Below, one piece after another: positions 5,195 through 25,980 of a DNA stretch of 50,832 nt. Location of the stretch: NCBI GenBank assembly GCA_030539285.1, contig JAUNSH010000016.1, positions 1-50,832 of the forward strand, written 5' to 3'. The notes beneath the pieces are model-generated. The model ran no database searches and had not been told where the DNA came from. It saw nothing but the letters and a program-made list of their open reading frames with translations. The DNA is from Eubacteriales bacterium. Lineage in GTDB: Bacteria > Bacillota > Clostridia > Oscillospirales > Oscillospiraceae. The number at the start of each line of letters is the position of its first letter. Position 1 is the first letter of the stretch. A program made the translations under genes and the position numbers.

Positions 5195-5208
<14 letters not shown>
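4198..5208 (-). CDS. Glycoside hydrolase family 5 enzyme (endo-glucanase/mannanase-like)
   Basis: This is a single-domain GH5 TIM barrel of 336 residues. The N-terminal RGINLGGW strand, the VRLP strand, the acid/base Asn140-Glu141 (ELLNEIAEID), the SFHFYEP strand and the nucleophile Glu278 (YCGEYGV) are all visible. No signal peptide or carbohydrate-binding module is present, so it is probably an intracellular enzyme acting on imported oligosaccharides; the exact linkage cannot be read. Its ATG lies inside the last codons of the GH51 frame (14-nt overlap), pointing to translational coupling. That coupling could reduce its expression now that the upstream gene is frameshifted. Confidence 0.88.
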
Positions 5209-6522
<1,314 letters not shown>

Positions 6523-10531: not shown

Positions 10532-10534
10532 CCA

Positions 10535-10565
10535 AAGCGGCTTCCCAAAACATGGGAAGCCGCTT
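10535..10565. terminator. Bidirectional terminator between BlaR1-like gene and pilus operon
   Basis: AAGCGGCTTCCCA (10535-10547) pairs perfectly with TGGGAAGCCGCTT (10553-10565) around a 5-nt loop. It lies between convergent genes; flanking U-tracts are weak, so termination strength is uncertain. Confidence 0.7.
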
Positions 10566-10591
10566 CTGCATGACGGTGCGCATACTGATAT

Positions 10592-11266
10592 TCAATTGTC
10601 CGTGACGATTTCAAAACGGACGGTCACACGGCTTTGACCGCCGACCGTGCAGGTAAACAGGGTCAGGTCCCAGTCGCCGCTCTCCATTTCCTCAACAGCG
10701 GCCGGCAGAAGGATTTCCTGCTCCACTAGCCTGTAGGTGAAAACATTCCCGTCCATATCCGTGAAGGTGGCAAGATCACCCTCCCTCAGATTTTTCAGGT
10801 TGCCGAAATGGGAAGCGTAGTTGTGGGCGCAGATAATCAGATCATTCAGATAGGCGGAGCCGCTGTACCGGCAGGGCGCGGTTTTCAGGTTTGGATAACT
10901 CCACTGGCTGATGATTGGCAGTTCGAGTTCCAAAGCGGGAATTTGCAGAACACCGATATAGTCTATCCCGTTGATGGTTTCAACCGGCATTTCCATATCG
11001 GGGCAGAGCACATAGTCCGGGACGGCTATCTGCCCTTCGCCCACCGTTGGCTCCGGATCCACGGATGGATTCGTGGAAGCTTCCTGGGCAGTCCCGGCGG
11101 TCAAATCCTCCAGATGGCTGATAACCTGCCGGGCGGACTGTTCTGCGCGCAATTCGTCGTATAGATTGCGGGCTGTCAGGAAAAGAGCCGCCGCAATCAG
11201 CAGCAGCCCAATCGTAATCGACAGCAGCCCCGTTTGATTTCTGCCATTTTTCTTTTTACTGCTCAT
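10592..11266 (-). CDS. Sortase (accessory, possibly pilus-anchoring)
   Basis: This 224-residue sortase has one N-terminal membrane anchor (about residues 13-32). Sortase motifs are the catalytic His148 in ICAHNYASHFGNLKNL, Cys206 in LTLFTCTVGG and Arg213. Sortases cleave LPxTG substrates and join them to an amine, either cell wall or another pilin. It lacks the C-terminal membrane segment of the class C sortase two genes upstream, so it may attach the finished pilus or the minor pilin to the wall; this is inference, and I do not assign a class. Its ATG overlaps the end of the minor pilin gene by 11 nt, and it is the last gene of the pilus operon. Confidence 0.88.
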   Translation of the reverse strand: MSSKKKNGRNQTGLLSITIGLLLIAAALFLTARNLYDELRAEQSARQVISHLEDLTAGTAQEASTNPSVDPEPTVGEGQIAVPDYVLCPDMEMPVETINGIDYIGVLQIPALELELPIISQWSYPNLKTAPCRYSGSAYLNDLIICAHNYASHFGNLKNLREGDLATFTDMDGNVFTYRLVEQEILLPAAVEEMESGDWDLTLFTCTVGGQSRVTVRFEIVTDN

Positions 11267-12206
11267 CCGTCGAACTCCTGCGGCGAATCAAGCCGATGAC
11301 AACGAACAGCAATCCCACAGCGATCAGCACCGGCACCGGCCACCATAGCTGTCCGGTCTGGGGCAGGGTGGACTTGCCTGATCCCGTCGACGTTGTGGAC
11401 TTGTTACAGGTGTTGGTGACAATGAAGCGGTAGCCCTCCTGCTGAACGGTCGGCTCCTTGTAGCCGGTTGCTTTTTTCTCCGTCACCGTCCACTGATGAT
11501 TGGTGTCCAGATCCTCCCAGGTGTAGCGCCAAGCCCCCTCATGAGGAAGGGTGACGGTATCGTACACCTCTCCGTCACAGATCAGAGAAATGGTGATGGA
11601 TTTGGGGCGCTGATCCTTGTGGCAGCGGTCTTTCCAGACCTTGATGACTTCGTAGTTCGCCCGGACTGGTTCCTGGCCGGGCTTGGCGTTGGCCACCACA
11701 TGGTAGCTCCATGTGGTGCTGCTCAGATCCTGTTCCGGCAGCATGACGAAAAAGGGAGAAGTGGAATACACATAGCCGTTCTTTTGAATGGTGCTGCCCG
11801 GAACGAGGTAAAGACCCATAGGGATATCCGTAAACGCTGCCACACCGTCGGAATTTGTCACGGCGGAACGGCTGGGCTTCAGGTCCGGATCCAGCAGGAT
11901 CTCCCGGGCCAGGATCTGGGCCATGTTCTGCCACGCCGCATCATTTTTGCCCCGGATATCCAGCTCCTCCTCATAGTCCTCATAGCGGTCAATGACGGAC
12001 AGTTCTCCGTATTGATCCACATTGGCGATCAGATAGGCGTCAAGCCGCAGCCCGGAAATGGGCATGTCTGAATAGACCGCGGTGACGGTCAGGCTGTGCG
12101 CATGGCCCAAGTCAATGATTCCCGCCGCGGAAGCGCCGGCCGGCAGCAGAAGGACCACGGCCAGCAGCGAAAACAGCAGCGCGCTGAGCCGTTTACAGAT
12201 CTTCAT
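11256..12206 (-). CDS. Minor/basal pilin, SpaA/Cna-B type, LPQTG-anchored
   Basis: This is a cell-wall-anchored pilin subunit of about 316 residues. A signal peptide (LLFSLLAVVLLLPAGASA) leads into an N-terminal pilin domain, then a Cna-B-like beta sandwich (NYEVIKVWKD onward, with the edge strand WTVTEKKATGYKEP). A linker rich in Ser/Thr/Gly precedes the sorting signal LPQTG, a hydrophobic helix and the IRRRSS tail. I chose ATG 12206; the GTG at 12218 lies inside the GGAGGTG ribosome site itself. It overlaps the class C sortase gene by 14 nt and the last sortase gene by 11 nt. The differing sorting signals (LPQTG here, LPETG on the major pilin and adhesin) suggest distinct sortase preferences. 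Confidence 0.88.
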   Translation of the reverse strand: MKICKRLSALLFSLLAVVLLLPAGASAAGIIDLGHAHSLTVTAVYSDMPISGLRLDAYLIANVDQYGELSVIDRYEDYEEELDIRGKNDAAWQNMAQILAREILLDPDLKPSRSAVTNSDGVAAFTDIPMGLYLVPGSTIQKNGYVYSTSPFFVMLPEQDLSSTTWSYHVVANAKPGQEPVRANYEVIKVWKDRCHKDQRPKSITISLICDGEVYDTVTLPHEGAWRYTWEDLDTNHQWTVTEKKATGYKEPTVQQEGYRFIVTNTCNKSTTSTGSGKSTLPQTGQLWWPVPVLIAVGLLFVVIGLIRRRSSTDEQ

Positions 12207-13053
12207 CGTCGTCGTCACCTCCGTGGTTCGTTTTGGGCCGCTTTGGCAGCAGAAGCAGTATCAGCAGTAACAGTAGGATCGGGATCGCCACAATGGGAGC
12301 CACCAGCAGCGGTTCGATCTGGACGGCGTCGGCTGTGACGCGGACGGTTTTGGCCTCCTCGATATTGTCGATCCGGTGCCCCCGGACCAGAAGCCGGTGG
12401 GTATTGATGCCGTAGGGGGTGCAGGTCACCAGTGTACAGTAGTCTTTCCCTTCCTCGATTTGCAGCGCGCCGACCTCCTGAGGCTCCACGATGAGGATCT
12501 GGTCCACCTCATAGGTCAGCACCTCATCCAGAATGCGCAGCAGGAAGATGTCTCCTTCCTGAAGCTTATCCAGATTGGAGAACAGCTTGGCGCTGGGCAG
12601 GCCCCGGTGACCGGAAAGGACGCAGTGGGTGCTCTCCCCGCCCACCGGCAGGCTGGACCATTCCAGGTGGCCCACGGCGATTTGCAAGACGGATTCCTCG
12701 GTGCCGTGGTAGATGGGCAGGCTGACGTCGATCTCCGGGATCTCGATATAGCCCATGATGCCAAGGCCGGACACATCCAGCAGCCGGGTGTATTCCTCCT
12801 TCTGCTCGTCGCTCAGGAGGAAGGCGTTGTCCCGTTCCGCCAGAGACGCGTTGTAGGCCTTTGCGGCGGCCCAGATCTCGTCGTACTGATCCTGATCCAT
12901 AATTGCCACGTTTTCGGCGTAGGTGGCAATGGCGCGGGTTTGGTGGAAGGAGTTCCAGTAATCGCTTACCGTGGGGTACAGCAGCAAGGACAGCCCTGTA
13001 AGAAGGATCAGGACCAAAAGCAGCGTTGTGAAATTGCCGTTTTTCTTCTTCAT
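12193..13053 (-). CDS. Class C (pilin-polymerising) sortase
   Basis: This 286-residue sortase has both an N-terminal membrane helix (about 9-28) and a C-terminal one (about 250-270, very Leu-rich), the topology of class C enzymes that polymerise pilins by isopeptide bonds. Catalytic residues are His139 (LSGHRGLPSAKLF), Cys201 (LVTCTPYGINTHR) and Arg210. The region DNAFLLSDEQ may form the lid seen in this class. A GAAxxxT-like acidic tail (GGDDDDEDL) ends the protein. An AAGGAG ribosome site precedes the ATG. It lies directly downstream of the major pilin gene, as in most Gram-positive pilus islands. Confidence 0.94.
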   Translation of the reverse strand: MKKKNGNFTTLLLVLILLTGLSLLLYPTVSDYWNSFHQTRAIATYAENVAIMDQDQYDEIWAAAKAYNASLAERDNAFLLSDEQKEEYTRLLDVSGLGIMGYIEIPEIDVSLPIYHGTEESVLQIAVGHLEWSSLPVGGESTHCVLSGHRGLPSAKLFSNLDKLQEGDIFLLRILDEVLTYEVDQILIVEPQEVGALQIEEGKDYCTLVTCTPYGINTHRLLVRGHRIDNIEEAKTVRVTADAVQIEPLLVAPIVAIPILLLLLILLLLPKRPKTNHGGDDDDEDL

Positions 13054-13078
13054 TCAGGGTTCTCCTTGCCGCTGCTTA

Positions 13079-13147
13079 CCGGGGAGGAAATCCCTCCCCG
13101 GCTTGTCGCAGCGGAATTGGTTTTCTATGGGGTGACTGATTCAGTCA
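13079..13147 (-). other. Two hairpins between major pilin and sortase genes
   Basis: The 99-nt gap after the major pilin stop holds the palindrome TGACTGATTCAGTCA (13133-13147) and a 9-bp GC-rich stem CCGGGGAGG/CCTCCCCGG (13079-13101). No U-tract follows either one. Such hairpins after an abundant structural gene commonly protect the upstream mRNA or attenuate the downstream catalytic genes; that role is inferred. Confidence 0.55.
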
Positions 13148-13152
13148 GGGGA

Positions 13153-14727
13153 TCAGCCATTGGTGCTCATGCGCTTCTTGGTGACCAGCAGCACCACAGC
13201 CGCCAGCACCAGGACGGAACCCAGGACATAGAAGATGGTGGTGCCGATACCGCCGGTTTCAGGCAGGGTGGAGCCTTTGTTGTTGGCAACAGTGATGCCC
13301 GCGATACCAGTGCTGGTATTTCCTGTACCGGCAGTACCGTCAGCGGTAACCGCCAGGTTGGTCAGCGCACTGCTGGCCTTGCCGTCTGTCCAGGTCTGAC
13401 CGTTGGTGGTGGTTGCCGTGATTACCACAGTGATCTCACTGCTCAGCAGATTGTAGCCGGTAGGTGCCTTGGTTTCCTTCAGATAGTAGGTGCCGTCATC
13501 CAGACCGATGACCTTGAACAGACCGTTGGCATCAGAAGTAAGCGTAGAACCGCCCTCCTCAGTGTCTGCCCAGCCAGTTACTTTGCCATCGCTATTGACG
13601 ATCGCCCACTTATTGTCTGCATTGTGCAGCTTGAATTCCGCACCTTCCAATTTTTTCGTGTTATCCTGTCCATCCACCTTGGTGGTGTCAAGCTCATAAG
13701 TGAAGACAATGACCTTATCCTCGGGGGTATTGCCGGTGTTGTTATCGCCGGAGCCGGACTGGTCAGGCTTGTTGGAGTATTCCAGATAAACGGTGTTAGG
13801 GTTGCCATCCAGGCCAACCGCAGCGTTCTGATTCAGGGTTGCGGTATATTCCACAATGATGTATTTGCCCTGGGAAACACCGGAAACCGTCTTCAGATCC
13901 GTGAAAGAAACGGTAAAGGACTGTCCATCCACAGCTTTGGTCCAGCCTGTGATCTCGGTTTTATCAGTACCGGCCTTGTCAGCAGCCACATAGACCTTAA
14001 TAGTGTTCTCGTTCAGTGTAAGACCAGCAGACAGGGTGTCGTGGAAAATATACTTATAGGTGTCATAGCGGCTCATATCGGGTACGGAACCAATCAGGTG
14101 GAAAGGCACAGCGTCGCCCATGTTGTAGTCAGCCACGTCATTGTAGCCCTCACCATAGCCGCCGTCCTGATTATACTTGTCGTCTTCCAGGACCTTCTTC
14201 TCCACGGTGGGCGCGTCGGTCTTTACGGTGATGTTGATGTTGCCAACCACCTGCAGCAGTGCGGTATTGTAAGCGCCACCCTCACCAACGTTAGCGGTAG
14301 TATCCACAACTAAATAGTAGCCATCATCCAATGTGTTCTCGCCGGAACTCAGAGCGGTACCGCTGCCACTCTTATTAGTATAGGCCAGCTTCGCGACAGC
14401 GTTGGCAAGGGTTGTATTGGTGTTGTTATCGCCCAGGACCTTCGCAACGGCAACTGCGTCTGTGCAGTCGGTGAACAAGCTGCCATAAGTTGTGTCAGCC
14501 TTCAGAGCAGCCAGAAAGTCATCGGAATTGATGCCGCTGCCCCACTTAACATCGGACAGAATGCCGCCTTCCTCACGGCCGGAGAAAATCTGATAAGCGG
14601 TAAAGGTATGATCCTTCAGAATGCCGTTGGAAGGAACGGTGACCGTTGCCGCCATTGCCGTACCAGCCAGGGCGAAGACCATGACCAGCGCCAGCAGGAG
14701 GGAGAGCAGTTTTCTTGTGTGCTTCAT
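13153..14727 (-). CDS. Major pilin backbone subunit, LPETG-anchored
   Basis: This 524-residue shaft pilin carries a signal peptide (LLSLLLALVMVFALAGTAMA), an N-terminal pilin domain (TFTAYQIFSG onward), and a pilin-lysine region around APTVEKKVLED, where the Lys would be joined to the LPETG Thr of the next subunit. Two further isopeptide-type sandwich domains follow, with an E-box-like YYLKETKAPTGYN in the last. The sorting signal LPETG is at 488-492, followed by a hydrophobic helix and KKRMSTNG. The gene starts 47 nt after the giant adhesin ends, and the polymerising sortase follows. Two hairpins behind it may raise its relative mRNA level. Backbone rather than tip role is inferred from size, motif and position next to the class C sortase. 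Confidence 0.92.
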   Translation of the reverse strand: MKHTRKLLSLLLALVMVFALAGTAMAATVTVPSNGILKDHTFTAYQIFSGREEGGILSDVKWGSGINSDDFLAALKADTTYGSLFTDCTDAVAVAKVLGDNNTNTTLANAVAKLAYTNKSGSGTALSSGENTLDDGYYLVVDTTANVGEGGAYNTALLQVVGNINITVKTDAPTVEKKVLEDDKYNQDGGYGEGYNDVADYNMGDAVPFHLIGSVPDMSRYDTYKYIFHDTLSAGLTLNENTIKVYVAADKAGTDKTEITGWTKAVDGQSFTVSFTDLKTVSGVSQGKYIIVEYTATLNQNAAVGLDGNPNTVYLEYSNKPDQSGSGDNNTGNTPEDKVIVFTYELDTTKVDGQDNTKKLEGAEFKLHNADNKWAIVNSDGKVTGWADTEEGGSTLTSDANGLFKVIGLDDGTYYLKETKAPTGYNLLSSEITVVITATTTNGQTWTDGKASSALTNLAVTADGTAGTGNTSTGIAGITVANNKGSTLPETGGIGTTIFYVLGSVLVLAAVVLLVTKKRMSTNG

Positions 14728-14774
14728 AATGGAATCCTTCTTTCTCTATTTTGATCTTTGCGGATGTTTGCGCA

Positions 14775-17700
14775 TCAGGATGATGTGAGTTCCTCCTTTC
14801 TGCGCTTTGACTGGTTATACAACAGGAAGCATCCCGCAATTGCCATCAGCAGTAGGCCTCCCAGAGTATAAGGAATGGTACCGCCTCCGCCGGTTTCGGG
14901 AAGCTGGTATTCGGGGGTTTCCTTGGCCTTGTTGGTCACGGTAATGGTGCCGGACTGGATGCCGCCGTTATTGTCATAGCGGGTATCATAGTTCGGAACC
15001 GAAACCTCCTCGATGTAGTAATAGTAGGTCACGGCATTGCCGTCGCCATCCGTGCCCGTCAGGGGAAGATTGGTGAAGGTGTAGGACCAACCGTTGTCCT
15101 TGTCGAGGGTGACGGTATCACAGAGGGTGCCCTCAGTGGTTGTGGCGATGTCTTCGTCATCGTTGCCGGATTCATCAAGGTTGGATAAACTGGTAGGCTC
15201 TATATAGGAATATGTAAGCATACCAACATTGCTATCACCCGTATGACCGCTGATCGTCGTATCACCGTTCACAATAAAGGAATATGTATACACACAGAGA
15301 CCAGTACCTTCTTCAGAATAACTGGTTAGTTCTTCTCCGTTTATGCTAATTACCGGTGTACCCCAACTGCTGACACGAATTATAAATTCTGTCCCCTTTT
15401 TGCAAGAAACGGTTGTCTCCTGTTCACAAGCGGGGTTATTGTCCCATTTTCCTTTTGTCACATTGATTTCTACAGTTACATCATCGCTTGATCCACCGTC
15501 TCCACCGCTTCCTCCACTGCTGGAGCCGCTCACAGCTTTCTGGTATAGCTTGATTGTGACGGAGCCACTGTTGTGATCAACGGTGCTTCCGTTCTTATCC
15601 TGCCATACCTTATTTACCGTAAGGTCTGTTTCGGCGGGTTGCTTTTTGTTGGTGATGGTGAAGCTACTCTCACCGACTTGGGCCACCGTTGTCGCATACC
15701 CTTCAACGGACACTTCCTCAAAGGAATAGGAATAAGCATTGCCGTCAGAATCCGTCTTGGGCAGGTTGCCAACGGTCAGAGTCCAGCCGTTTTCCCTTGT
15801 CAGCGTGTAGGGCTTAGCAGAATCGCCGGTGTTCCCATCCGAATCCACCCGCTCCGTGGTCTCGCCTGCCGTTCTGGTAAGATAAACCTGAATGGAATCC
15901 GGCAGGGTAGCGGAGGTTCCTTCAATAACCTCACCGTTCACATCCTCCCAGACCTTGTTCACCTTGACCGATACCGTGGTAACCGTCGGTGCTTTACTGT
16001 TGGTGACGGTAATGGTACCGCTCTGAACGCCGGACTGGCCGTCGCTGTAGCTTACACTGTACCCATCGGGGACGGTTACTTCCTTGAAGTAATAGTAATA
16101 ATACTCCGTGGTGCCGTCCTCCGCTGTGCCGGCCAGGGGCAGATTCGTAATGGTATCGGTCCAGTTGTTGCCAGAATTGAGGGTGACGGTTTGTATCCAA
16201 GTGCTTTCCGTATCGCTGGTCTCCGGGGCAGTGGGAACCGTTGCCTGAGATAGCGTTGTAACCGTGATGCTGGCAATATTGCCCTCCATCTCATCACTGA
16301 TAGAAATACTGACATTTCCTGTTACAATACCTTCATAGGTATACGTAGAGTGTCCACTAGCGGAAGAATCCGCTAAAACCCACCCGGTGATTGTCCCATC
16401 TTCCGTGCCGGTTACATTCACAGTCGGCCTCCAGGTCCAATCAGACGGAATCGCATAAGTAAGCGCGACCTTGATCCGGATTTTTGAACCGATGGTAATT
16501 GAATCCGCCGTAATCTTTCCTGTAACGTTAGCGTTATCTTTTGCAGTTGCAGTAACCGTGGCAGGTTCTCCGCTTCCAATCACTCCACCGCCGGAGCCGC
16601 TTCCTTGACCAACCCTCTGATACAGCCCCAGTTCGATTGTCTCCCCGCTGTGGGAGGCCGTCTCGTCGTTGCCGTTTTCGTCCAGCCACTTCTTCTCCAC
16701 AGAAATCTCCGTGGTGTTCTTGACATTCTCCACATAGACAGTCCGGGCCTCGTTGGTCAGATCCACCGCGTCGCTGGGAAGATTATCGGGCAGGGCGTGG
16801 GCGGTATCCTCGGTGCTGCTGAAGTAGAAGTAGAAGGTTTTCACTTCGTCCGGTAGCCGGTAGCCCTCGGGCGGAGCGGTCTCCGTGACCTTGTAGAGGG
16901 TGTTGGTGTCGTAGGTGAAGGTCACGTTTCCGCTGGCGTCCTTCTCCTGCCGGGTGATCTGGAAGGAGCCGGAGGCATTGGTGGAATAGGTTTTGACAGG
17001 TTCTGTGCCGTATTCGCTGGTACTGGTGTCGTACTTGTAGACGCTGAAGGTTGCGTCCGCAAGGCTGACATTATAGTTGCCCGCCTCCACCTTGTAGAAG
17101 GTATAGCTCTTGTCGGTGGTGACGCCCGCGGAATCGCTGGAGTGCTCCCACTTGGAACCGCTGCTGGAATTGTTGCCGGAATAGTCCGTCCCTTCCAGCT
17201 TGGCGGTGTTTCTGAACTCCAGATCAAAGGAAGTCTTCTTCCCGTCGATCTCGTCCGGCACATTGCAGGTGACGCGGTAGGAATACTGGAGCATCAAGGG
17301 CGTGCCGTCCGGGATCCCCGTGGCGGTGATGGTGTTGGTGGCGTTGTTGTTATTCCAGCCATCCTCACCGGTCTTGGACTCGTAGGTCCAGCTCCAGTCG
17401 GTGACCGCCTCTCCGGCTGCCCATTCTCCCTTTTCTTCGTCCCACACAGCCGTGTACAGCTTCACACTGCTCTGGATCAGGGCGGCGTTGATGGAATAGG
17501 CAATGCTGCCGTCAAAGGGATAGGACAGCCAGACCTGATTGGTATAGGTCATGGTGTCCGCCAGGGTCAGGGTGTCCACGCCCTCCACCAGGTCCTTGCT
17601 CTCCGGGTTGAGGATGATGGTGTAGTTCATGATCCGGTTGGTATTGTCCCAGCCGCCGGATTTGTCCACTACCTGGGTGACGACCTCTTCTTCCTGATAG

Positions 17701-18815
17701 GTCCACTCCTGAGTCTGGCTGGAGGAGCCGATCTCCCCGCCGTCCAGCTCCATTTTGGCGGTGTTGGTCAGCGTCTTGGATTCGCTCTGGTTCTCCGCGT
17801 TATCCACCTGACAGGTGACGGTGAGGGTGAATTCCGCCCCGGTCTGGATGGTATTGCCCTCGGTCTTTGGCTCAATATTCAGGGTGATGACGCGACCCTG
17901 ATAGGTGCCGCTGACGGTGTACTGATTGGTGCTGTCGGTGCCGGAGATGGTTCTGTCTTCGCCCACCGTCAGTTCCATGTTCAAATTACTCCAGCCGGTG
18001 AGCCACAGGCTTTCCAGCGTCACGCCCTCGGGCAGGGTATCGATCAGGGTCAGCTTTTTGTTCCCTTCACCCACGGTGGCCTTTACCTTCCAGGTCAGCT
18101 CGCCCTCATTGCTGACGGTGGTTGTGACCGTGCTGCCGTTGCCGTCGGTCTTGACCACGCCGGGCTTATAATAGGTGTACTCCGCCCCGGTCTCCTTGCC
18201 GCCAACCTGGATATCGTTATAGAATTTGTTGCCGCCGGTGGTGGCTTTTGTCAGATCCACCGTGGTGGAATAGGTGAAGGTCAGCTTGGTGGCTCCCTCC
18301 GGGGGAATCAGGCCCTCGGGGAAATGGATGGTGAAGAGGGTGTAGGTCAGAGCCTCGTAATTGACCCCTTCCTCACCCGTCGGTGCCTTATACTCGTTGA
18401 TCTGCTTGAAGGTGTAGGTATTGCCATCGGAGGCCAGGAAGGTGACCTGCTCTGGGGGTGGGTTATAGGTGTTGGTGCCGCCCACCGGGTTGCCGCTGTC
18501 GTCCGTCCAGGTCAGGTTGGCGGCCCAGGCGGTGATCTGGCTGCGGGTCATCCACTGGTTGGTGTTGGTATTGCCCCACTGGCCTTTGGTCACATCGTCC
18601 ACAATGGTGGTGCCCGCGGGCAGGCCGCCCTTGGGGATGGTCAGGGTCACCGTCCAGGGGATGGTCATGGTGGTGCCGTCATCGGAGACTGTGCCCGTTC
18701 CCACACTCTTGGCAACGCTGCCGTCACCGGGAACGGTCACATCCGCTGTGCCGGGGGTCTCCTTGCCATCCAGAGTCAGCTTGGCCTCGTTGTGGACGGT
18801 CTTGTCGTTCCACTC
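14775..18815 (-). pseudogene. C-terminal part of the giant LPETG adhesin, beyond an in-frame TAG
   Basis: This is the in-frame continuation of the frame that stops at 18816-18818, about 1,346 codons. It has isopeptide/collagen-adhesin-like sandwich domains, then three Cna-B repeats beginning ISVEKKWLDENGND, VSVKVNKVWEDVNG and LTVNKVWQDKNG, each ending in an edge strand such as YYYYFKEV or YYYYIEEV. The sorting signal LPETGGGG, a membrane helix and a KRRKEE tail end it at 14775. No plausible start follows the TAG: the first alternative codon (GTG 18740) has no ribosome site and lies mid-domain. Unless the TAG is read through or is a sequence error, this wall-anchored part is not made and the N-terminal half would not be sorted. 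Confidence 0.85.
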
Positions 18816-21800
18816 CTAGGGTTCATCGGTGGTATAGGTGATCGTGTACTGGTTCGTGTTGACGCCGTTTTCCTCGGTGGCATTGAAGGTGATGCTGGTG
18901 ATCTTGCCATTTTCGTCTATGTCAACCGTGTATTCGCTGGGATCAGGAGTCCCCCAGCCGTTTTTCTGGATGGTAATATCACTGGCAGTCAACCGGCTGA
19001 ACATTTCATCCGTCAGCACCGCGCCCGCCATATTCAGCTTGCTGGCGTTGACGGTGATGGTCCAGCTGATTTTATTATTCCAGGTATAGCTGCCGCTCTT
19101 GGTCAGCTGTATTTCATCCGGTTTCACGGTGGATTCCGAACCAATGGGCGTGCCGTCTTTTCCCTCGCCGGGGTAGAGGGTGGCGCTGTTGGTGACGGGG
19201 GACGTGGTGCCGTCTTCATTCTCGGTCACAGCGGTGGAGTATTTAATAGTATAGGACTGAGTGTTCTTGCCGTCTTCCACCTCCGTGAAGGTGATGCCGG
19301 TGATCTTGCCGTCAGTATCCTCGGTGAAGGAATAACCGGTGGATGGCTCGATGGTGAAGTCCTTTTCCAACAGGGCGGCGAACATCTTGTCGGTCAGGGT
19401 AGCTCCCGCAATGTCCAGATTGCCGGCGTTGACGGTGATGGTCCAATCGATCTGGTTGGTGATGCCGTTAAATTGGCCCCACTTATTCAGCTGCACGCCG
19501 CTGACGGTTACGGAAGCGGTGACTTCCTTCTCGTCGCCGTCATCGCCAGGTGTGGGGTCAAAGGCGGCCTTGTTGGTCACGGTGGTGCCATCCCAGCTTT
19601 CCTTTACCGGGGTATAATAGGTGATGGTGTATTTGTTCTTGTTGACACCGTTTTCCGTGGCGGTAAAGGTGATGTCGGTGATCTTCCCGTTTTCGTCCTT
19701 GGTCATGGTTGCGCCCTCGGCGGGGTAGATCACGATATCCTTCGCGGTATCCTCCACCAGACCCAGCATTCCGTCCGCCAGCTTGGCCCCGGCGATATCC
19801 TGCTCGTTGTTGTTCACAGTGACCGTCCACTTGATATAGCCGGGCTTATCGGAGGCTACCTGACCGTACTTATCCAGCGTGTAGCTGAAATCCTTATTCA
19901 CGTTCACAGTGGTCTCGGCGCTGTCGGTAACGGTCTGGCCCTTGGTCTCATCTTTGGCGGTGACGGTGACTTTGTTCTCCGGGGAGACGATAGCCACCGT
20001 CTGGCCGGTGATGGGATAGGTGTAGGTGATCTTGTAGACCTGGCCGGTAATGTACGTCGTGTAATTACTGTCCGTTTTCTCCTCGGCGGACAGCTTTGAC
20101 AGCATAAGCGTTAATTCTCCGTTTCCATTGGTGTGCTCAATGGCGCTGACTTCGCTCCAATCATTTTGATCGTTAAGTGTCCAGGTTCCATTCCAAGAGA
20201 GATAATAATCAGAGGTTCCCTTTTCGATTGTGACTACTGGCTCTCCCAGCGTCAGGCCGTCGCAAGTAATGGTATCGGTAAAGCTGATGGGATCCGGAGT
20301 GCCTTTGGTTGTGCGGACGTAGACGGTATAGACCAGCTTGTCCCCGTCCTGGACCCAGCTGCCGGACTTGCTGACAGCAATGTCATAGGACTCCGTCTCA
20401 TCCTTCGGGTAAGTGATCTCCTCACTGGGGACCAGAACGGTGGCATCATCCCCGCCCACAACGATATCGCCCTTATCGTTCATGTCCTCTTTGCTGAAGG
20501 AGCCTTCAAACTGGACATAGCCGGTGACGGTATCGCCGGATTCGTTCACATAGTTCTCGTTGAAGATGACCTGAACGGAATATGTGCCATCCCCATTGTC
20601 GATAAACTGATAGGTACCCGCCAGCTTATCCCCATCATAGAGATTCTGGGCACCCTTACTCACAACGTCATCCGGAACTGTGATCCCCTTGGGATAGGTG
20701 TAGGTGTAGACAGTCCCCGCGGTGGGTTTTTCGGTGAACTGAAAATCAATGCGGACGTTGGTGGTGAACTGGTCGGTGGCGGGATTATACTTGGTTTCAT
20801 TGCCCGAAAGCTTGGTCACCGGGAGTGTAGCCGATGAATTTGCGTTGTCATCGTCCAGCAGCATGATCCCATATACAGCGGACGCCTCCTGGGGATAGCA
20901 GTCCTCCGTATGGGTATGTTCCTCCAACTCGCAGGTCAAAACCCAGGTGCCATAGCACAGGGCGGAATGGGTATGGTTCTCGTCCTCCGGCAGGGTGCAG
21001 GTCAGGGCTTCGGTGTCCACCGACTCCTGCACCGTTTCAAAACAGGCGGTGCTATGCTGGTGCTCCAAGACCTGGATCCTCCCGCAGACCAAATTGCCGG
21101 AAGCGTCAAAGCAGGCTGAAGTGTGCCGGTGAAGAATGATCTCTGGCTCTGCACAGACCAGCACCGGTTCCGGATCTTCCTCCGTGGCGCTTTCCACCGG
21201 TTCCGTGGGCAAATCGCAGATCAGTACCCGCTGCCATTCATAGCAGTCCTCGGTGTGCTGGTGGTCACTGTCGATCCCGCAGGTCAGCGTCTGGATGGTT
21301 TCGAAGCAGCCTTCTCCGTGCTGATGCCCCTCAGAGCATTCCAGCCCACAGATGATTTCCCCGTTTTCGTCCATGCAGCTTTCGTCGTGCTGATGGCCGG
21401 CGCTTTCCTCCAGACCACAGACAAGAACGGGGGTCTCGGTATAGCAGGCATCCGTATGGACATGCTGCTGGCAGGTCAGCGCTCCCTGCTCCAGGGTATA
21501 GCAGGCATCGGTATGGGCATGTACTTCTTCAACTGTCTTCTCCGGCTGGACATAACAGCTGCCGGTATGCTGGTGCGCTTCGATCTCGGGAAGCGGGCAC
21601 CACAGGTTTCCGTTTTCGCCGTAGCAGGTGGAATCGTGACGGTGGACCACAAAATTGGCGTATCCACAGGTCAGATCGCCGTCAGAGTCATAGCAGCTGG
21701 CGGTGTGCTGATGAATCGCCAGCGTCTCCGCGCTGCACACGGGAGCCGTCTTTTCCACGGATGTGACCTGGGTATAGCAGGCCTCGGCGTGGGTATGCTC

Positions 21801-21965
21801 AGGGATGTCGCACTGCTTCTCCATGGTGATGGCGGGGAGGATCAGCGCATAGGTGGTACAGAATACCACCACTGCCGCCAGACAGGTGACGACCTGATAC
21901 CAGCGTTTTTTCCTTAGATGTGCTTTCGTATATTTCTCTGCGCCTTGCAGCGCATCCTTCGCCAT
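18816..21965 (-). CDS. N-terminal part of giant pilus-associated adhesin with His/Cys repeats
   Basis: This 1,049-residue frame opens a ~2,400-codon surface protein. A basic stretch and one long hydrophobic segment (about residues 22-46, ending LILPAIT) form the export signal. Residues ~57-370 hold 13 units of H-x-H-x3-C-[YFM], most followed about 10 residues later by a second Cys in an L-x-C context. The rest is a series of ~130-residue sandwich domains with recurring strands such as WTITVNA and YTITYYT, resembling the isopeptide-rich domains of collagen-type adhesins. The frame ends in TAG immediately after TTDEP, inside the third recurring sandwich repeat, and the same frame then continues to an LPETG signal at 14775. 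It starts 7 nt after the signal peptidase stop. Tip adhesin is the likely role. Confidence 0.88.
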   Translation of the reverse strand: MAKDALQGAEKYTKAHLRKKRWYQVVTCLAAVVVFCTTYALILPAITMEKQCDIPEHTHAEACYTQVTSVEKTAPVCSAETLAIHQHTASCYDSDGDLTCGYANFVVHRHDSTCYGENGNLWCPLPEIEAHQHTGSCYVQPEKTVEEVHAHTDACYTLEQGALTCQQHVHTDACYTETPVLVCGLEESAGHQHDESCMDENGEIICGLECSEGHQHGEGCFETIQTLTCGIDSDHQHTEDCYEWQRVLICDLPTEPVESATEEDPEPVLVCAEPEIILHRHTSACFDASGNLVCGRIQVLEHQHSTACFETVQESVDTEALTCTLPEDENHTHSALCYGTWVLTCELEEHTHTEDCYPQEASAVYGIMLLDDDNANSSATLPVTKLSGNETKYNPATDQFTTNVRIDFQFTEKPTAGTVYTYTYPKGITVPDDVVSKGAQNLYDGDKLAGTYQFIDNGDGTYSVQVIFNENYVNESGDTVTGYVQFEGSFSKEDMNDKGDIVVGGDDATVLVPSEEITYPKDETESYDIAVSKSGSWVQDGDKLVYTVYVRTTKGTPDPISFTDTITCDGLTLGEPVVTIEKGTSDYYLSWNGTWTLNDQNDWSEVSAIEHTNGNGELTLMLSKLSAEEKTDSNYTTYITGQVYKITYTYPITGQTVAIVSPENKVTVTAKDETKGQTVTDSAETTVNVNKDFSYTLDKYGQVASDKPGYIKWTVTVNNNEQDIAGAKLADGMLGLVEDTAKDIVIYPAEGATMTKDENGKITDITFTATENGVNKNKYTITYYTPVKESWDGTTVTNKAAFDPTPGDDGDEKEVTASVTVSGVQLNKWGQFNGITNQIDWTITVNAGNLDIAGATLTDKMFAALLEKDFTIEPSTGYSFTEDTDGKITGITFTEVEDGKNTQSYTIKYSTAVTENEDGTTSPVTNSATLYPGEGKDGTPIGSESTVKPDEIQLTKSGSYTWNNKISWTITVNASKLNMAGAVLTDEMFSRLTASDITIQKNGWGTPDPSEYTVDIDENGKITSITFNATEENGVNTNQYTITYTTDEP
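20893..21797 (-). repeat. Array of 13 His/Cys repeats coding H-x-H-x3-C
   Basis: Thirteen degenerate units encode motifs such as HTHAEACY, HQHTASCY, HAHTDACY, HQHGEGCF and HTHTEDCY. Unit length varies from about 17 to 40 residues. Eleven units carry a second Cys (for example DLTCG, LICDL, LVCGR), giving up to two His and two Cys per unit, a set that could bind metal or form disulfides. Confidence 0.9.
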
Positions 21966-21972
21966 GTATCCG

Positions 21973-22575
21973 TCACCGTCCTTCCTGGCTCAGCGTCCCG
22001 AAGCCCGACAGGGGCCAGACCCGGAATATGATTTTTCCGACAACCTGTTCCTCAGAGACGCAGCCAACCACAGTGCTGCGGGAATCCACCGAGGTGGACC
22101 GATGGTCGCCCATGCAGAAGTACCGGCTGTCCGGCACCTGGTAGGGCAGATCGATGTCACAATCCCCCAGGGATTTTTCCGTCAGATACGGCTCGTCCAG
22201 CAGCTTTCCGTCCACATACACGTTGCCCTCGGCGTCGATATCCACCCACTGACCGGGACCGGCGATACAGCGCTTGACCAAAATCTTGTTGCCTATGTAA
22301 AAGGCTACCAGATCGCCTACCTCAAAATCCGATCCTTTGACGGAGACGACAATATCTCCCTCATTCAGGGTCGGCGTCATGGAAGCGCCGTAAATCTGCA
22401 GCACCGGCATCCAGATGGTGGCGACCAATACAGCTATGGCCGCAACGACCACAAGGGTATAGATAGTGCTTCTCAGGACCCGCCGGTACCGTCTTTTGTA
22501 TTTCTCTCTGTCAAGCTCCGCTTCCAGCTGCTCCAGGGTCGGAAGCCTGTGGGACGGATTTGCTGTATTCTTCAT
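21973..22575 (-). CDS. Signal peptidase I, dedicated to the pilus operon
   Basis: This type I signal peptidase of about 200 residues removes signal peptides outside the membrane using a Ser/Lys dyad. One N-terminal transmembrane helix (IYTLVVVAAIAVLVATIWM) precedes the Ser motif YGASMTPTL and the Lys motif NKILVKRCIA; the GDH/RSxDSR region (CMGDHRSTSVDSR) is also present. Both catalytic residues are intact, unlike the inactive pilus-type SipA proteins of streptococci. ATG 22575 is preferred (GGAGAGG 9 nt upstream) over the TTG at 22584. It overlaps the coiled-coil gene by 65 nt and is followed after 7 nt by the giant adhesin, so it probably matures the adhesin and pilins. Confidence 0.93.
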   Translation of the reverse strand: MKNTANPSHRLPTLEQLEAELDREKYKRRYRRVLRSTIYTLVVVAAIAVLVATIWMPVLQIYGASMTPTLNEGDIVVSVKGSDFEVGDLVAFYIGNKILVKRCIAGPGQWVDIDAEGNVYVDGKLLDEPYLTEKSLGDCDIDLPYQVPDSRYFCMGDHRSTSVDSRSTVVGCVSEEQVVGKIIFRVWPLSGFGTLSQEGR

Positions 22576-23026
22576 CGATCTCAACCTCTCCAGCCGACTG
22601 AATCAATTGCCGCAGCGCTTCCTGGTCTGCCAGCAGTTTGGCCGCTCTGGCAGCGACCTGCTTCCAGTAGGCATCCGCGTCCGCACGCACCTTTTTGCTG
22701 TACGCCTCTGCCTCCTGCCGGATCTGGGCGGCCTCTTTTGCCGACTGCTCCTTTATAACACGGCTGATGGCATCATGCTGGCTGCTGATCCGCTGGATAT
22801 TTTCCAGATACTGCTGCGCCGCGGCCTCCGCCGCCTGAAAGACACCGTTGAGGGACAGGGCAGCCTCCGCCAGGGAACCGGCCTTGTCGATCTCGATCCT
22901 GCGGTCCCGGAGCTGTGCTTCTGCCTGCTCCAGCCTGATTTTCAGCTGACTGTTTTCCTCTGTCTGGGCGATGAGCATTTCCAGCAGCTCACCCCGGCTC
23001 AAGCGCCGTAACTCTTTATCTGTCAT
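22511..23026 (-). CDS. Cytoplasmic coiled-coil protein of unknown function (DivIVA-like appearance)
   Basis: This 171-residue protein is almost entirely alpha-helical and charged. It has no signal peptide or membrane segment. Residues ~20-45 (ENSQLKIRLEQAEAQLRD) and ~95-150 are heptad-like and rich in Ala/Glu/Lys/Gln. I do not recognise a named family; the look is that of DivIVA/GpsB-type scaffold proteins. As the first gene of the pilus operon it might place the export and sortase machinery at a particular site in the cell. The start is supported by AGGAGGAACCGG just before the ATG. Its end overlaps the signal peptidase gene. Confidence 0.75.
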   Translation of the reverse strand: MTDKELRRLSRGELLEMLIAQTEENSQLKIRLEQAEAQLRDRRIEIDKAGSLAEAALSLNGVFQAAEAAAQQYLENIQRISSQHDAISRVIKEQSAKEAAQIRQEAEAYSKKVRADADAYWKQVAARAAKLLADQEALRQLIQSAGEVEIDEEYSKSVPQASDPGAAGSGA

Positions 23027-23068
23027 CCGGTTCCTCCTGATCTTTGTCCTATGTCATGAAAACAAAAA

Positions 23069-23118
23069 GGGCGGCAGTCATTTCTCCGCCCGCCCCAGAT
23101 TTCCGCTTCGCAGCGGGC
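23069..23118 (-). promoter_or_regulatory. Attenuator-like leader with mutually exclusive hairpins before the pilus operon
   Basis: In the transcript's 5' leader a 6-bp GC stem (plus-strand GGGCGG 23069-23074 with CCGCCC 23086-23091) is followed on the minus strand by TTTTTGTTTTC, an intrinsic terminator. An upstream segment (plus strand GCGGGC 23113-23118) can instead pair perfectly with GCCCGC 23088-23093, which would break the terminator. A further hairpin (CACCATG with CATGTGGTG) lies upstream, near 23126-23153. This is the layout of a riboswitch or attenuator; the signal is unknown. Confidence 0.6.
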
Positions 23119-23198
23119 TGATCCTATCACCACATGATCTCCATTACATGGTGAAATGTTCTCAACAATGGTTCCGTGCTCAATTTAAAATTATAATT

Positions 23199-23227
23199 AT
23201 TATAGTACGAGGACAAGAAAAAATCAA
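23199..23227 (-). promoter_or_regulatory. Promoter of the pilus operon
   Basis: On the minus strand TTGATT (23222-23227), a 17-bp spacer and TATAAT (23199-23204) form a good sigma-A-type promoter. Transcription would start near 23190, giving a ~165-nt leader before the ATG at 23026. The stretch 23228-23349 upstream is AT-rich and holds nothing else I can identify. Confidence 0.65.
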
Positions 23228-23349
23228 TATCGGAATAAAAATTGTATATATTGTATAAACGGAAACTGTAAATATTGTACATATAGATAAATGAATAAAT
23301 CGAAGTTACAAAAGAAACAATCCCTGACAGGCTGTGATTGCTGTATTGA

Positions 23350-23499
23350 AGGAAATTGATTGGCTATGCGGTGGCTGCTGAGCGCATGGAATATGAAAAG
23401 CGGATCGAGTCTCTGGAAGATAGCAAACAATCCCTGTTCGAGAAGTGCATTATGGGCCAAATTGACGCAGAAACCTACAAGCCTGAAAAGACCCGCTGA
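23350..23499 (+). pseudogene. C-terminal remnant of a recombinase-like protein
   Basis: An open stretch of 49 codons ends in TGA and encodes a charged helical tail including MEYEKRIESLEDSKQSLFEK and MGQIDAETYKPEK. It resembles the C-terminal coiled coil of large serine recombinases of clostridial transposons, but the catalytic and zinc-ribbon parts are absent and the upstream sequence does not continue them. It is followed by a proper terminator, so it looks like the preserved end of a once intact gene. Identification is tentative. Confidence 0.45.
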
Positions 23500-23523
23500 C
23501 CATACCGGTTAGCGGGCCTTTTT
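23492..23523 (+). terminator. Rho-independent terminator of the recombinase remnant
   Basis: CCCGCTGACC (23492-23501) pairs with GGTTAGCGGG (23507-23516), one G-T wobble, and is followed by CCTTTTT. It overlaps the remnant's stop codon. Confidence 0.8.
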
Positions 23524-23651: not shown

Positions 23652-24050
23652 TTACACTTCAATCAGATCGTACTCTCTGGTCCCGTAGCCAAAAGCGGCG
23701 GCAGCCTCGATGGTGTGGACACCGTTCCGGCTTTCGATCCGCTCCAGCAGGCGGGGCTTGCCGGGATCGGTGCAGGCGTATACCAGATCGATGCAGGCCT
23801 GATCGATGGCAATGGGGTCTGTGGAGGCAAGCACACCGATGTCGGCAATGCAGGGATCCTCCGCAACGGCACAGCAGTCGCAGTCCACGCTCATGTTCTT
23901 CATCACATTGATGTACACCAGATTGCCGTTAAAGTAGCTGACCACAGAGCCAGCCGCGTCCGCCATGGATTCCAGAAAGGAATCGTGATCGGATGTCCAA
24001 ATCTTCTCGGGATCGCCCGCACCGTGGATATAGGCCTTTAGGGACTCCAA
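23652..24050 (-). pseudogene. DUF362-family protein, N-terminally truncated
   Basis: About 130 residues match the C-terminal part of DUF362 (putative iron-sulfur/ferredoxin-associated) proteins: YFNGNLVYINVMKNMSVDCD, then the Cys pattern around DCDCCAVAEDPCIADIG, then LASTDPIAIDQACIDLVY and ERIESRNGVHTIEAA. The N-terminal two-thirds are missing. At the broken end (about 24040-24050) the frame meets the C-terminus of a small mobile-element HTH gene, and no ribosome site precedes the TTG at 24050. The gene therefore appears to have been cut by insertion or deletion. Confidence 0.75.
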
Positions 24051-24259
24051 AAACTTCGATTTAGGGTGTCCCTCTTTTCTTTTTCGCCATAGCAGAGTTC
24101 TTCCAGAAAGAATTTCCGGTTTACTCTGCCGGATATGGTCAAATACCCAAGGCTTTTCAATTCTGCATTGAGCTGCTGTACGATTTTGTAGGCATAGGAT
24201 TTGGAAACGCCCAACTCCTTGGCTACTTCATCTACTCTCATAAAAGTGTTTTCGTTCAA
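24038..24259 (-). CDS. Small helix-turn-helix protein of mobile-element (excisionase-like) type
   Basis: This ~73-residue protein has a clear N-terminal helix-turn-helix (MRVDEVAKELGVSKSYAYKI) followed by QQLNAELKSLGYLTISGRVNRKFFLEEL. Similar small proteins serve as excisionase or regulatory factors of integrative elements in Firmicutes. I chose TTG 24259 because AGGAGG lies 8 nt before it; ATG 24241 is in the same frame but too far from that site. The last residues (after YGEKEKRDTL) run into the truncated DUF362 gene, so the natural C-terminus may have been altered. Confidence 0.7.
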   Translation of the reverse strand: MNENTFMRVDEVAKELGVSKSYAYKIVQQLNAELKSLGYLTISGRVNRKFFLEELCYGEKEKRDTLNRSFWSP

Positions 24260-24409
24260 ATAAAGTACCTCCTGGTTTTGTTGTTGATTTTTGATTGTTT
24301 TCTGAAAGAAGCATAGACTGACCCTGCCTACTTCGTAAGATTTTCTACCCCGCCGAACCACCGGCAGCGATATGCTGATTGAGGCTTTGAAAGAAGGTAC
24401 TGAATAAAG

Positions 24410-24843
24410 ATGTACGAAAGCTACACCAGACAATCTCTCCCTACCAGACAATATAGAGAATTACTTGGTAGCGCAATTTGTGTTTTTAATTCCAATAATG
24501 CCTTTATGATTGAGAACATACTCAGATGTGATGAAATCGGGAAGTATGACTGGTATCACTTGATTGACCTTGAATCTGGTAAGCTCAAAAAAGCGTGCAT
24601 GAAGTGATTAGCTCAAAGTGTGGGACTGAAATAGAGGACTTATTTGTAACTATTGTGAATATGCGAAATCGAATAATTCATAGTTTTCGTATCACAGATG
24701 AAAATGGAGAACAGATTTTAGCAACCAAAGAAAAAGTGAAAGACGGAAATCACCAATTCCACATAACCGAAGAATACCTTTTAGAGTTCATAGGGCTTAA
24801 TCAACAGCTTTCAGACAAGTTGCATAATCTGCGAGGGTATTGA
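24410..24843 (+). pseudogene. Conserved accessory protein of unknown function, split by a frameshift
   Basis: Two overlapping frames form one protein of about 143 residues. The first (24410-24607) encodes YTRQSLPTRQYRELLGSAIC and ends after SGKLKKACMK; the second begins in frame near 24592 and encodes HEVISSKCGTEIEDLF, MRNRIIHSF and a C-terminal ITEEYLLEFIG region. The shift falls at a run of six A (24587-24592). Inserting one A joins the halves as SGKLKKSVHEVISSKCG, so loss of one base from an A7 run is the simplest explanation. Family function is unknown to me. The gene lies in mobile-element debris near guaA. A sequencing indel in the homopolymer is possible. Confidence 0.7.
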
Positions 24844-24999: not shown

Positions 25000-25980
25000 T
25001 CATTCCCACTCAATCGTACCGACAGGCTTCGGCGTCAGATCCATCAGCACCCGGTTGATACCTTCAACCTCAGTGGTAATGCGGCTCGTGATATGGTGCA
25101 GCAGGGGATAGGGGATCTCCTCAATGGTGGCGGTCATGGCGTCGGTGGTGTTTACCGCACGGATGATGGCGGGCCAGCCTTCGTAGCGCTTGCCGTCCTT
25201 CACGCCTACGCTCTTCATGTCGGGAACCGCAATGAAATACTGCCAGACCTTGCCCGCCAGACCGTTTTTGTCGAACTCCTCCCGCAGGATGGCGTCGGCT
25301 TCCCGCAGGGCTTCCAGACGGTCACGGGTGATGGCACCCAGGCACCGTACGCCCAGACCGGGGCCGGGGAAGGGCTGACGGTAGACCATGCCGTGGGGCA
25401 GGCCCAGAGCTTCGCCGACCACGCGGACTTCGTCCTTAAACAGAAGCTTCACCGGCTCCACCAACTCGAACTTCATGCCCTCGGGCAGACCGCCCACGTT
25501 GTGGTGGGCCTTCACGCCGTGGGATTCCAGAATGTCGGGGTAGATGGTGCCCTGAGCCAGGAAATCGATGCCCTCCAGCTTCTTTGCCTCGTCGTTGAAG
25601 ACTTCAATGAACTCCTTGCCGATGATCTTGCGCTTGGTCTCGGGATCGGAGACACCTGCCAGCTTGTCCAGAAACCGATCCACGGCATCAACATAAATGA
25701 GATTAGCGTCCATTTCATCCCGGAACACCTTGACCACCTGTTCCGGCTCGCCCTTGCGCAGAAGACCGTGGTTGACGTGGACGCACACCAGCTGCTTGCC
25801 GATGGCCTTGATCAGCAGGGCTGCCACCACGCTGGAATCCACGCCGCCGGACAGGGCCAGCAGGACCTTCTTGTTACCGACCTGGGCACGAACCTCGGCG
25901 ATCTGCTCGTCGATGAATTTCTGAGCCAGCGCGGGAGTGGTGATGCGCTCCATGCTTTCGGGACGTACATTGTTTGACAT
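25000..25980 (-). CDS. guaA: GMP synthase ATP-pyrophosphatase subunit (lacks glutaminase domain)
   Basis: The 326 residues cover the ATP-pyrophosphatase and dimerisation domains of GMP synthase, which aminates XMP to GMP. The PP-loop [11 protein letters not shown] (about 41-51), [31 protein letters not shown] and the C-terminal KPVGTIEWE are all present. The ~200-residue class I glutamine amidotransferase domain normally fused at the N-terminus is absent. This is not a truncation artefact: GGAGGG sits 9 nt before the ATG and a promoter lies just upstream. No amidotransferase gene is adjacent, so ammonia must come directly or from a separately encoded subunit, as in the two-subunit archaeal enzyme. 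The 3' end borders mobile-element debris. Confidence 0.92.

What the first reader, a model, noticed from the sequence alone, without database searches (positions are those of the whole stretch)
14775..21965. Single in-frame TAG splits a ~2,400-codon pilus-associated adhesin
The minus-strand frame runs 1,049 codons, meets TAG at 18816-18818, and then continues in the same frame for about 1,346 codons to an LPETG signal. The break falls inside a recurring sandwich domain (after TTDEP, before EWNDKTVHNEAKL). The downstream part has no usable start. One C-to-T change in a Gln codon (CAG to TAG) would explain it. Either the wall-anchored adhesin is off in this strain, or readthrough makes a minor full-length form, or the base is wrong. 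TAG ends trxB, ccdA, the ydcF-like and the YitT-like gene here, so the code is not recoded.
Basis: partly seen in the sequence, partly recalled or inferred. Interest (0 to 1): 0.75.

Follow-up and report, generated by a model that had tools for sequence, protein, structure and literature searches.

The report
Nonsense-split pilus tip adhesin gene
In this draft genome, probably of an uncultured gut bacterium, the gene for the large adhesive tip protein of a surface pilus is cut in two by one in-frame stop codon that its relatives lack; this looks like an ordinary recent gene inactivation (or an assembly error), of a kind already described in another pilus cluster.

Summary
On the minus strand a 1,049-codon frame ends at TAG (18816-18818), and the same frame runs on for 1,346 codons to an LPETG wall anchor. 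The parts are one gene: in six orthologs from other draft genomes titled as Clostridia, one uninterrupted frame of 1,853-2,165 codons carries both, collinear. The stop is not conserved. The cluster is a classical sortase pilus operon. TAG is a normal terminator here (23 of 184 ORFs, this one included). No TAG-reading tRNA was found among 36 tRNA genes (one with an unassigned anticodon) of an 84%-complete assembly. Constraint downstream is intact, so the stop is recent, or it is not real. In the same genus, two other tip adhesins are broken by other lesions, and one pilin-like gene is cut by an in-frame TAG. The closest precedent is Streptococcus suis sfp2 (PMC2797073), where a nonsense mutation leaves pili of the major subunit only. 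Best reading: recent loss of the anchored tip adhesin, with an assembly error as main rival. Programmed readthrough is unlikely.

The parts
21973..22584 (-). signal peptidase I, first gene of the pilus cluster
   Evidence: PF10502 E 8.7e-32; TIGR02227 112.8 bits, cut-off 47
18819..21965 (-). upstream part of the tip adhesin, 1,049 aa: membrane/signal segment (by eye), 13 HxHxxxC repeats, then sandwich-type domains; lacks a wall anchor
   Evidence: (PF05737 Collagen_bind)
18816..18818 (-). in-frame TAG inside the third of three similar domains (by eye)
14775..18815 (-). downstream part, 1,346 open codons: rest of the broken domain, further domains, SpaA and Cna_B domains, LPETG sorting signal; no start or signal peptide
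13153..14727 (-). major (backbone) pilin, 524 aa, LPETG
   Evidence: NF033902 101.6 bits (cut-off 95), TIGR04226 85.8 bits (cut-off 30), PF16569
12193..13053 (-). class C (pilin-polymerising) sortase
   Evidence: NF033745 279.1 bits (cut-off 160)
11256..12218 (-). small Cna_B protein with LPQTG, likely basal pilin
   Evidence: PF05738 E 2.9e-15; sequence
10592..11266 (-). second sortase-family protein
   Evidence: PF04203 E 6e-14; no NCBIfam sortase model above its cut-off

Best explanation
A recent nonsense mutation in the gene for the tip (ancillary) adhesin of a sortase-assembled pilus. Shown: the two frames are one gene, the stop is present in this assembly, and the relatives found lack it. 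Inferred: the cell makes at most a secreted 1,049-aa piece without a wall anchor, which sortase cannot attach. The downstream 1,346 codons are not translated, because they have no start and no signal peptide. Pili, if made, consist of backbone and basal pilin without this tip, because the backbone pilin, basal pilin and class C sortase genes are open.
For: The parts are collinear in single uninterrupted genes of six orthologs. TAG is a normal terminator: 23 of 184 ORFs of at least 200 aa, this one included. No anticodon CTA among 36 tRNA genes of this assembly, one of which has an unassigned anticodon (pattern search). Of 37 gene places of the family that could be classified, 34 end at a wall-anchor motif and 3 are broken: this one, G132:C47 (frameshift plus TAA) and G019:C32 (frameshift near the end). 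Breakage is thus sporadic and of mixed kinds. Precedent: S. suis sfp2, in a cluster of signal peptidase, ancillary pilin, major pilin and class C sortase, with an ochre nonsense codon and pili made of the major subunit only (PMC2797073: abstract and two Results sections read).
Against: Downstream of the TAG there is no sign of decay: no further stop or frameshift in 1,346 codons. Differences to L107 by codon position are 0.177/0.098/0.643, and this genome alone departs at 17 sites against 22 for L107. So the mutation must be recent, or it is not real. No second genome of the species and no reads were available.
Confidence: 0.6

Rival explanations
1. The TAG is a wrong base in a fragmentary assembly, or a minority variant picked from a strain mixture; the living cells carry an intact gene.
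For: The genome is a draft in 98 contigs, 84% complete, 2.6% contaminated. The six orthologs are intact. The downstream frame is under full constraint. The same contig holds another broken gene, a GH51-like arabinofuranosidase with a frame change and apparently missing middle.
Against: Wrong bases in an assembled consensus are rare at normal read depth (general knowledge; depth and platform are unknown here). Copies broken by other lesions in other genomes suggest that real inactivation happens in this family, though those are drafts too.
Confidence: 0.3
2. Regulated or leaky readthrough of the TAG yields a minor anchored full-length adhesin beside a secreted short form.
For: Constraint on the downstream part is intact. 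A pilin-like gene of another genus member (G076:C20) is also split by an in-frame TAG before its LPETG tail.
Against: The stop is absent from six of six orthologs. No anticodon CTA was found among the 36 tRNA matches of G000 (one anticodon unassigned) or the 51 of 52 tRNA matches of G076 that ARAGORN called (one anticodon unassigned). The other two broken tip adhesins carry a TAA or frameshifts, not TAG.
Confidence: 0.06
3. Two separate proteins: the downstream part is re-initiated and works alone.
For: A long open frame with its own wall anchor; an AGGAG string overlaps the stop.
Against: The first in-frame start-like codon is a GTG, 26th codon after the stop, inside a domain, and no signal peptide follows. 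The six orthologs are single genes.
Confidence: 0.03

Closest known systems
Streptococcus suis srtF pilus cluster, sfp2 pseudogene (PMC2797073)
   Same: Signal peptidase, ancillary pilin/adhesin, major pilin and class C sortase in one cluster; nonsense codon in the ancillary gene with the remainder left in the genome; the other genes open
   Different: There the stop is TAA after codon 49, was found in the further strains sequenced, and pili were shown by blots (read) and microscopy (section heading only seen). Here it is TAG after codon 1,049 in one draft genome, and a basal pilin and second sortase follow. The two adhesins were not compared by sequence.
SpaCBA/Ebp-type sortase-assembled pili of Gram-positive bacteria (recalled)
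   Same: Class C sortase, isopeptide-domain major pilin and two ancillary LPXTG proteins
   Different: Tip protein with 13 HxHxxxC repeats that no Pfam model matched
Collagen adhesin Cna (PDB 1d2p)
   Same: Repeat domains in the downstream part match (E 2e-11; Cna_B)
   Different: Only a stretch of about 100 residues was listed; the upstream part matched no solved structure at E 0.001

Membership tests
Sortase-assembled pilus cluster | class C sortase gene | tested here: met
   NF033745 279.1 bits over cut-off 160
Sortase-assembled pilus cluster | major pilin with isopeptide domain and LPXTG | tested here: met
   NF033902 101.6 bits over 95; TIGR04226 85.8 over 30; TIGR01167 23 over 15.9
Sortase-assembled pilus cluster | covalent polymer on the cell surface | not testable with these tools
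   needs blots or microscopy
Nonsense-inactivated ancillary pilin gene (sfp2-like) | in-frame stop with collinear remainder, intact in relatives | tested here: met
   six orthologs intact
Nonsense-inactivated ancillary pilin gene (sfp2-like) | protein absent from the cell | not testable with these tools
   no culture or proteome
Nonsense-inactivated ancillary pilin gene (sfp2-like) | stop seen in further strains of the species | not tested
   one genome per species held; no same-species second genome seen
Programmed stop readthrough | stop conserved among orthologs | tested here: not met
   absent in six of six orthologs
Programmed stop readthrough | TAG-reading tRNA | tested here: inconclusive
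   none among 36 tRNA genes, one of them unassigned, but the assembly is 84% complete and Tyr, His, Phe, Ile and Thr tRNAs were not seen either
Recoded genome (TAG = sense) | TAG not used as terminator | tested here: not met
   23 of 184 ORFs end in TAG, this one included; a Mg-chelatase gene with complete domains ends in TAG before a ThiI gene

The most novel reading that the evidence does not exclude
In this genus, in-frame TAG codons in wall-anchored pilus genes (this tip adhesin and the G076 pilin-like gene) are read through at a low rate, so that each gene gives a secreted short form and a rarer anchored form, an on/off dial at the level of translation.
Probability: 0.04. Interest if true: 0.7.

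Novelty: new member of a known kind. Interest (0 to 1): 0.2.

Why it matters
Tip adhesins decide what a pilus sticks to (general knowledge). If the stop is real, this lineage has shed its anchored tip while keeping the rest of the pilus operon, as reported for S. suis. Together with two other broken tip adhesins in the genus, that hints that tip loss recurs here. If it is an error, it is a warning about judging single stops in draft genomes. Either way the finding is ordinary.

Tried and rejected
Recoding of TAG: rejected. Suppressor tRNA: ARAGORN on all 36 tRNA matches of G000 and all 52 of G076 (one of these, at a contig end, was not called; one anticodon in each genome could not be assigned), plus a pattern search of both genomes. 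Its six hits fell in four tRNA-Leu(cag) genes and two places without a tRNA, one of which was also checked against Rfam; the backwards control pattern hit more often, 10 and 25 times. Two separate genes: rejected. Long-decayed pseudogene: not supported. Virus-borne copy: the one viral-contig scan found no relative. Promoter and terminator scans of 10300-23500 found about what shuffles give (9 vs mean 8.5; 14 vs mean 12.1). Literature: four searches, listings only except for two papers. on readthrough in adhesins listed one unrelated paper; on sortase pili in Oscillospiraceae drafts listed seven, none on point by title. PMC8088525 (passages only) reports nonsense mutations in C. perfringens pilin mutants but not in the pilin genes, so it is not a precedent.

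Full report
What is there. The minus strand from 22584 to 10592 holds a pilus cluster: signal peptidase I (21973-22584), the finding's two frames (21965-14775), a major pilin (13153-14727), a class C sortase (12193-13053), a small Cna_B protein with LPQTG (11256-12218) and another sortase-family protein (10592-11266). The upstream frame gives 1,049 residues and ends at TAG 18816-18818; the same frame then stays open for 1,346 codons and ends in an LPETG sorting signal. By eye the break lies in the third of three similar domains (printed). Pfam finds Collagen_bind in the upstream part, and Cna_B and SpaA in the downstream part.

Is it one gene. Eight relatives were compared with the two pieces apart. 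In four (G116, G019, G135, G139) the upstream piece aligns up to residue 1046-1049 and the downstream piece starts at residue 1-2, at places 3-5 residues apart in one protein. Of the other four, G118 matches only upstream (residues 1-356), G104 matches the N-terminal repeats and the anchor, G002 matches both ends, and G121 aligns over most of both pieces but at 26-30% identity with overlapping ends. L107 (record title Lachnospiraceae bacterium SUG1763) and L110 (record title Blautia sp. SUG67) also carry both pieces in one frame, with a 9-base interval that the last two residues and the stop position account for. The genome-contig scan returned six loci, of which four have the contig lengths of G116, G135, G019 and G139. 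The six are uninterrupted, 1,853-2,165 codons from stop to stop. Identity of the first 420 downstream residues is 46-81% (best segment). No second copy was found in this genome. That the organism is an uncultured gut bacterium is inferred from these record titles, one of which names a deer colon.

Is it chance or recoding. Of 210 mechanical ORFs in 291 kb of this assembly none has a longer open run behind its stop. TAG ends 23 of 184 ORFs of at least 200 aa, this one included, among them genes with complete known domains. The tRNA search gave 36 genes, none with anticodon CTA; one has an unassigned eight-base loop. The pattern search for a CTA loop hit tRNA-Leu(cag) genes and two non-tRNA places. 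The tRNA set is incomplete (no Tyr, His, Phe, Ile or Thr), so this absence is only moderate evidence.

How old. Over 633 ungapped columns of the downstream part, differences between this genome and L107 fall at codon positions 1/2/3 as 0.177/0.098/0.643. Where the outgroups L108 and L112 agree, this genome alone departs at 17 sites and L107 alone at 22. In the upstream part (631 columns) the values are 0.162/0.154/0.659 and 37 against 21. The part behind the stop is thus no less constrained than the part before it. Two stretches were compared, not the whole gene. A recent mutation, an error and continued translation all fit.

How common. The N-terminal 138 residues match in 37 of 136 genomes of the genus, at 43 gene places by my count of the listing. 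I fetched regions for all but one of them (G133:C143, whose contig ends inside the gene) and classified ORFs together with L107: 43 rows. One (L151) duplicates L106, four run off contig ends, and one (L142, 346 aa) is not clearly a member; one fetched region (L167) gave no match. Of the remaining 37 places, 34 (L107 among them) end in a wall-anchor motif and three do not: this one; a second copy in G132:C47 (152 codons, then a frame change, then a TAA); and a second copy in G019:C32, whose anchor lies in another frame just behind its stop. L110 is intact but was not in this count. Separately, a pilin-like gene in G076:C20 (assembly 8% contaminated) is cut by TAG before its LPETG tail. Errors in these draft assemblies cannot be excluded.

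Reading. Loss of the tip with the pilus machinery kept is the simplest account. The S. suis srtF cluster gives a worked example: a nonsense codon in the ancillary gene sfp2, no detectable Sfp2, and pili of Sfp1 only (PMC2797073; abstract, and the Results sections on the cluster and on other strains, read). That pili form here is inference. Whether the base is right cannot be decided without reads.

Length. The two parts sum to 2,395 codons against 1,853-2,165 in the orthologs. In G116, G019, G139, L107 and L110 the main downstream alignment ends near residue 940, and a further match starts between about residues 1037 and 1216, so extra repeats near the anchor probably account for most of the difference (inference).

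Noticed in passing
5195-6516 (-): A GH51-like arabinofuranosidase is broken: the N-terminal part (5845-6516, named by eye; no Pfam match) and the C-terminal domain (5195-5920, PF06964) lie in different frames and the middle seems to be missing.
   Followed up: partly
23652-24451 (-): Only the C-terminal part of a DUF362 protein is left (PF04015 positions 132-200), directly behind a short helix-turn-helix-like frame that resembles a mobile-element remnant (by eye).
   Followed up: partly
20898-21797 (-), residues 57-356 of the upstream piece: Thirteen HxHxxxC motifs in the N-terminal region, 9-15 in each of six orthologs, many H and C columns invariant in six aligned sequences; no Pfam family matched there.
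   Followed up: partly
L141:11572-13817 (G132:C47): Second, damaged tip adhesin upstream of a pilin-like and a sortase-like gene: frame change after 152 codons and an in-frame TAA further on.
   Followed up: partly
L156:934-6626 (G019:C32): Tip adhesin of 1,794 codons whose wall anchor lies in another frame just behind the stop, a frameshift near the end.
   Followed up: partly
L174:1013-3103 (G076:C20): Pilin-like gene cut by an in-frame TAG, with 118 more codons ending in an LPETG anchor in the same frame, followed by two sortase-like genes (by eye).
   Followed up: partly
25000-25980 (-): GMP synthase of 326 aa in which Pfam finds only the synthetase domains; no amidotransferase half was noticed next to it.
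   Followed up: no
L084:13564-13641 (G000:C23) and L216:132-206 (G076:C112): tRNA-like genes with odd anticodon loops (ARAGORN reads 'caat' and 'aa').
   Followed up: no
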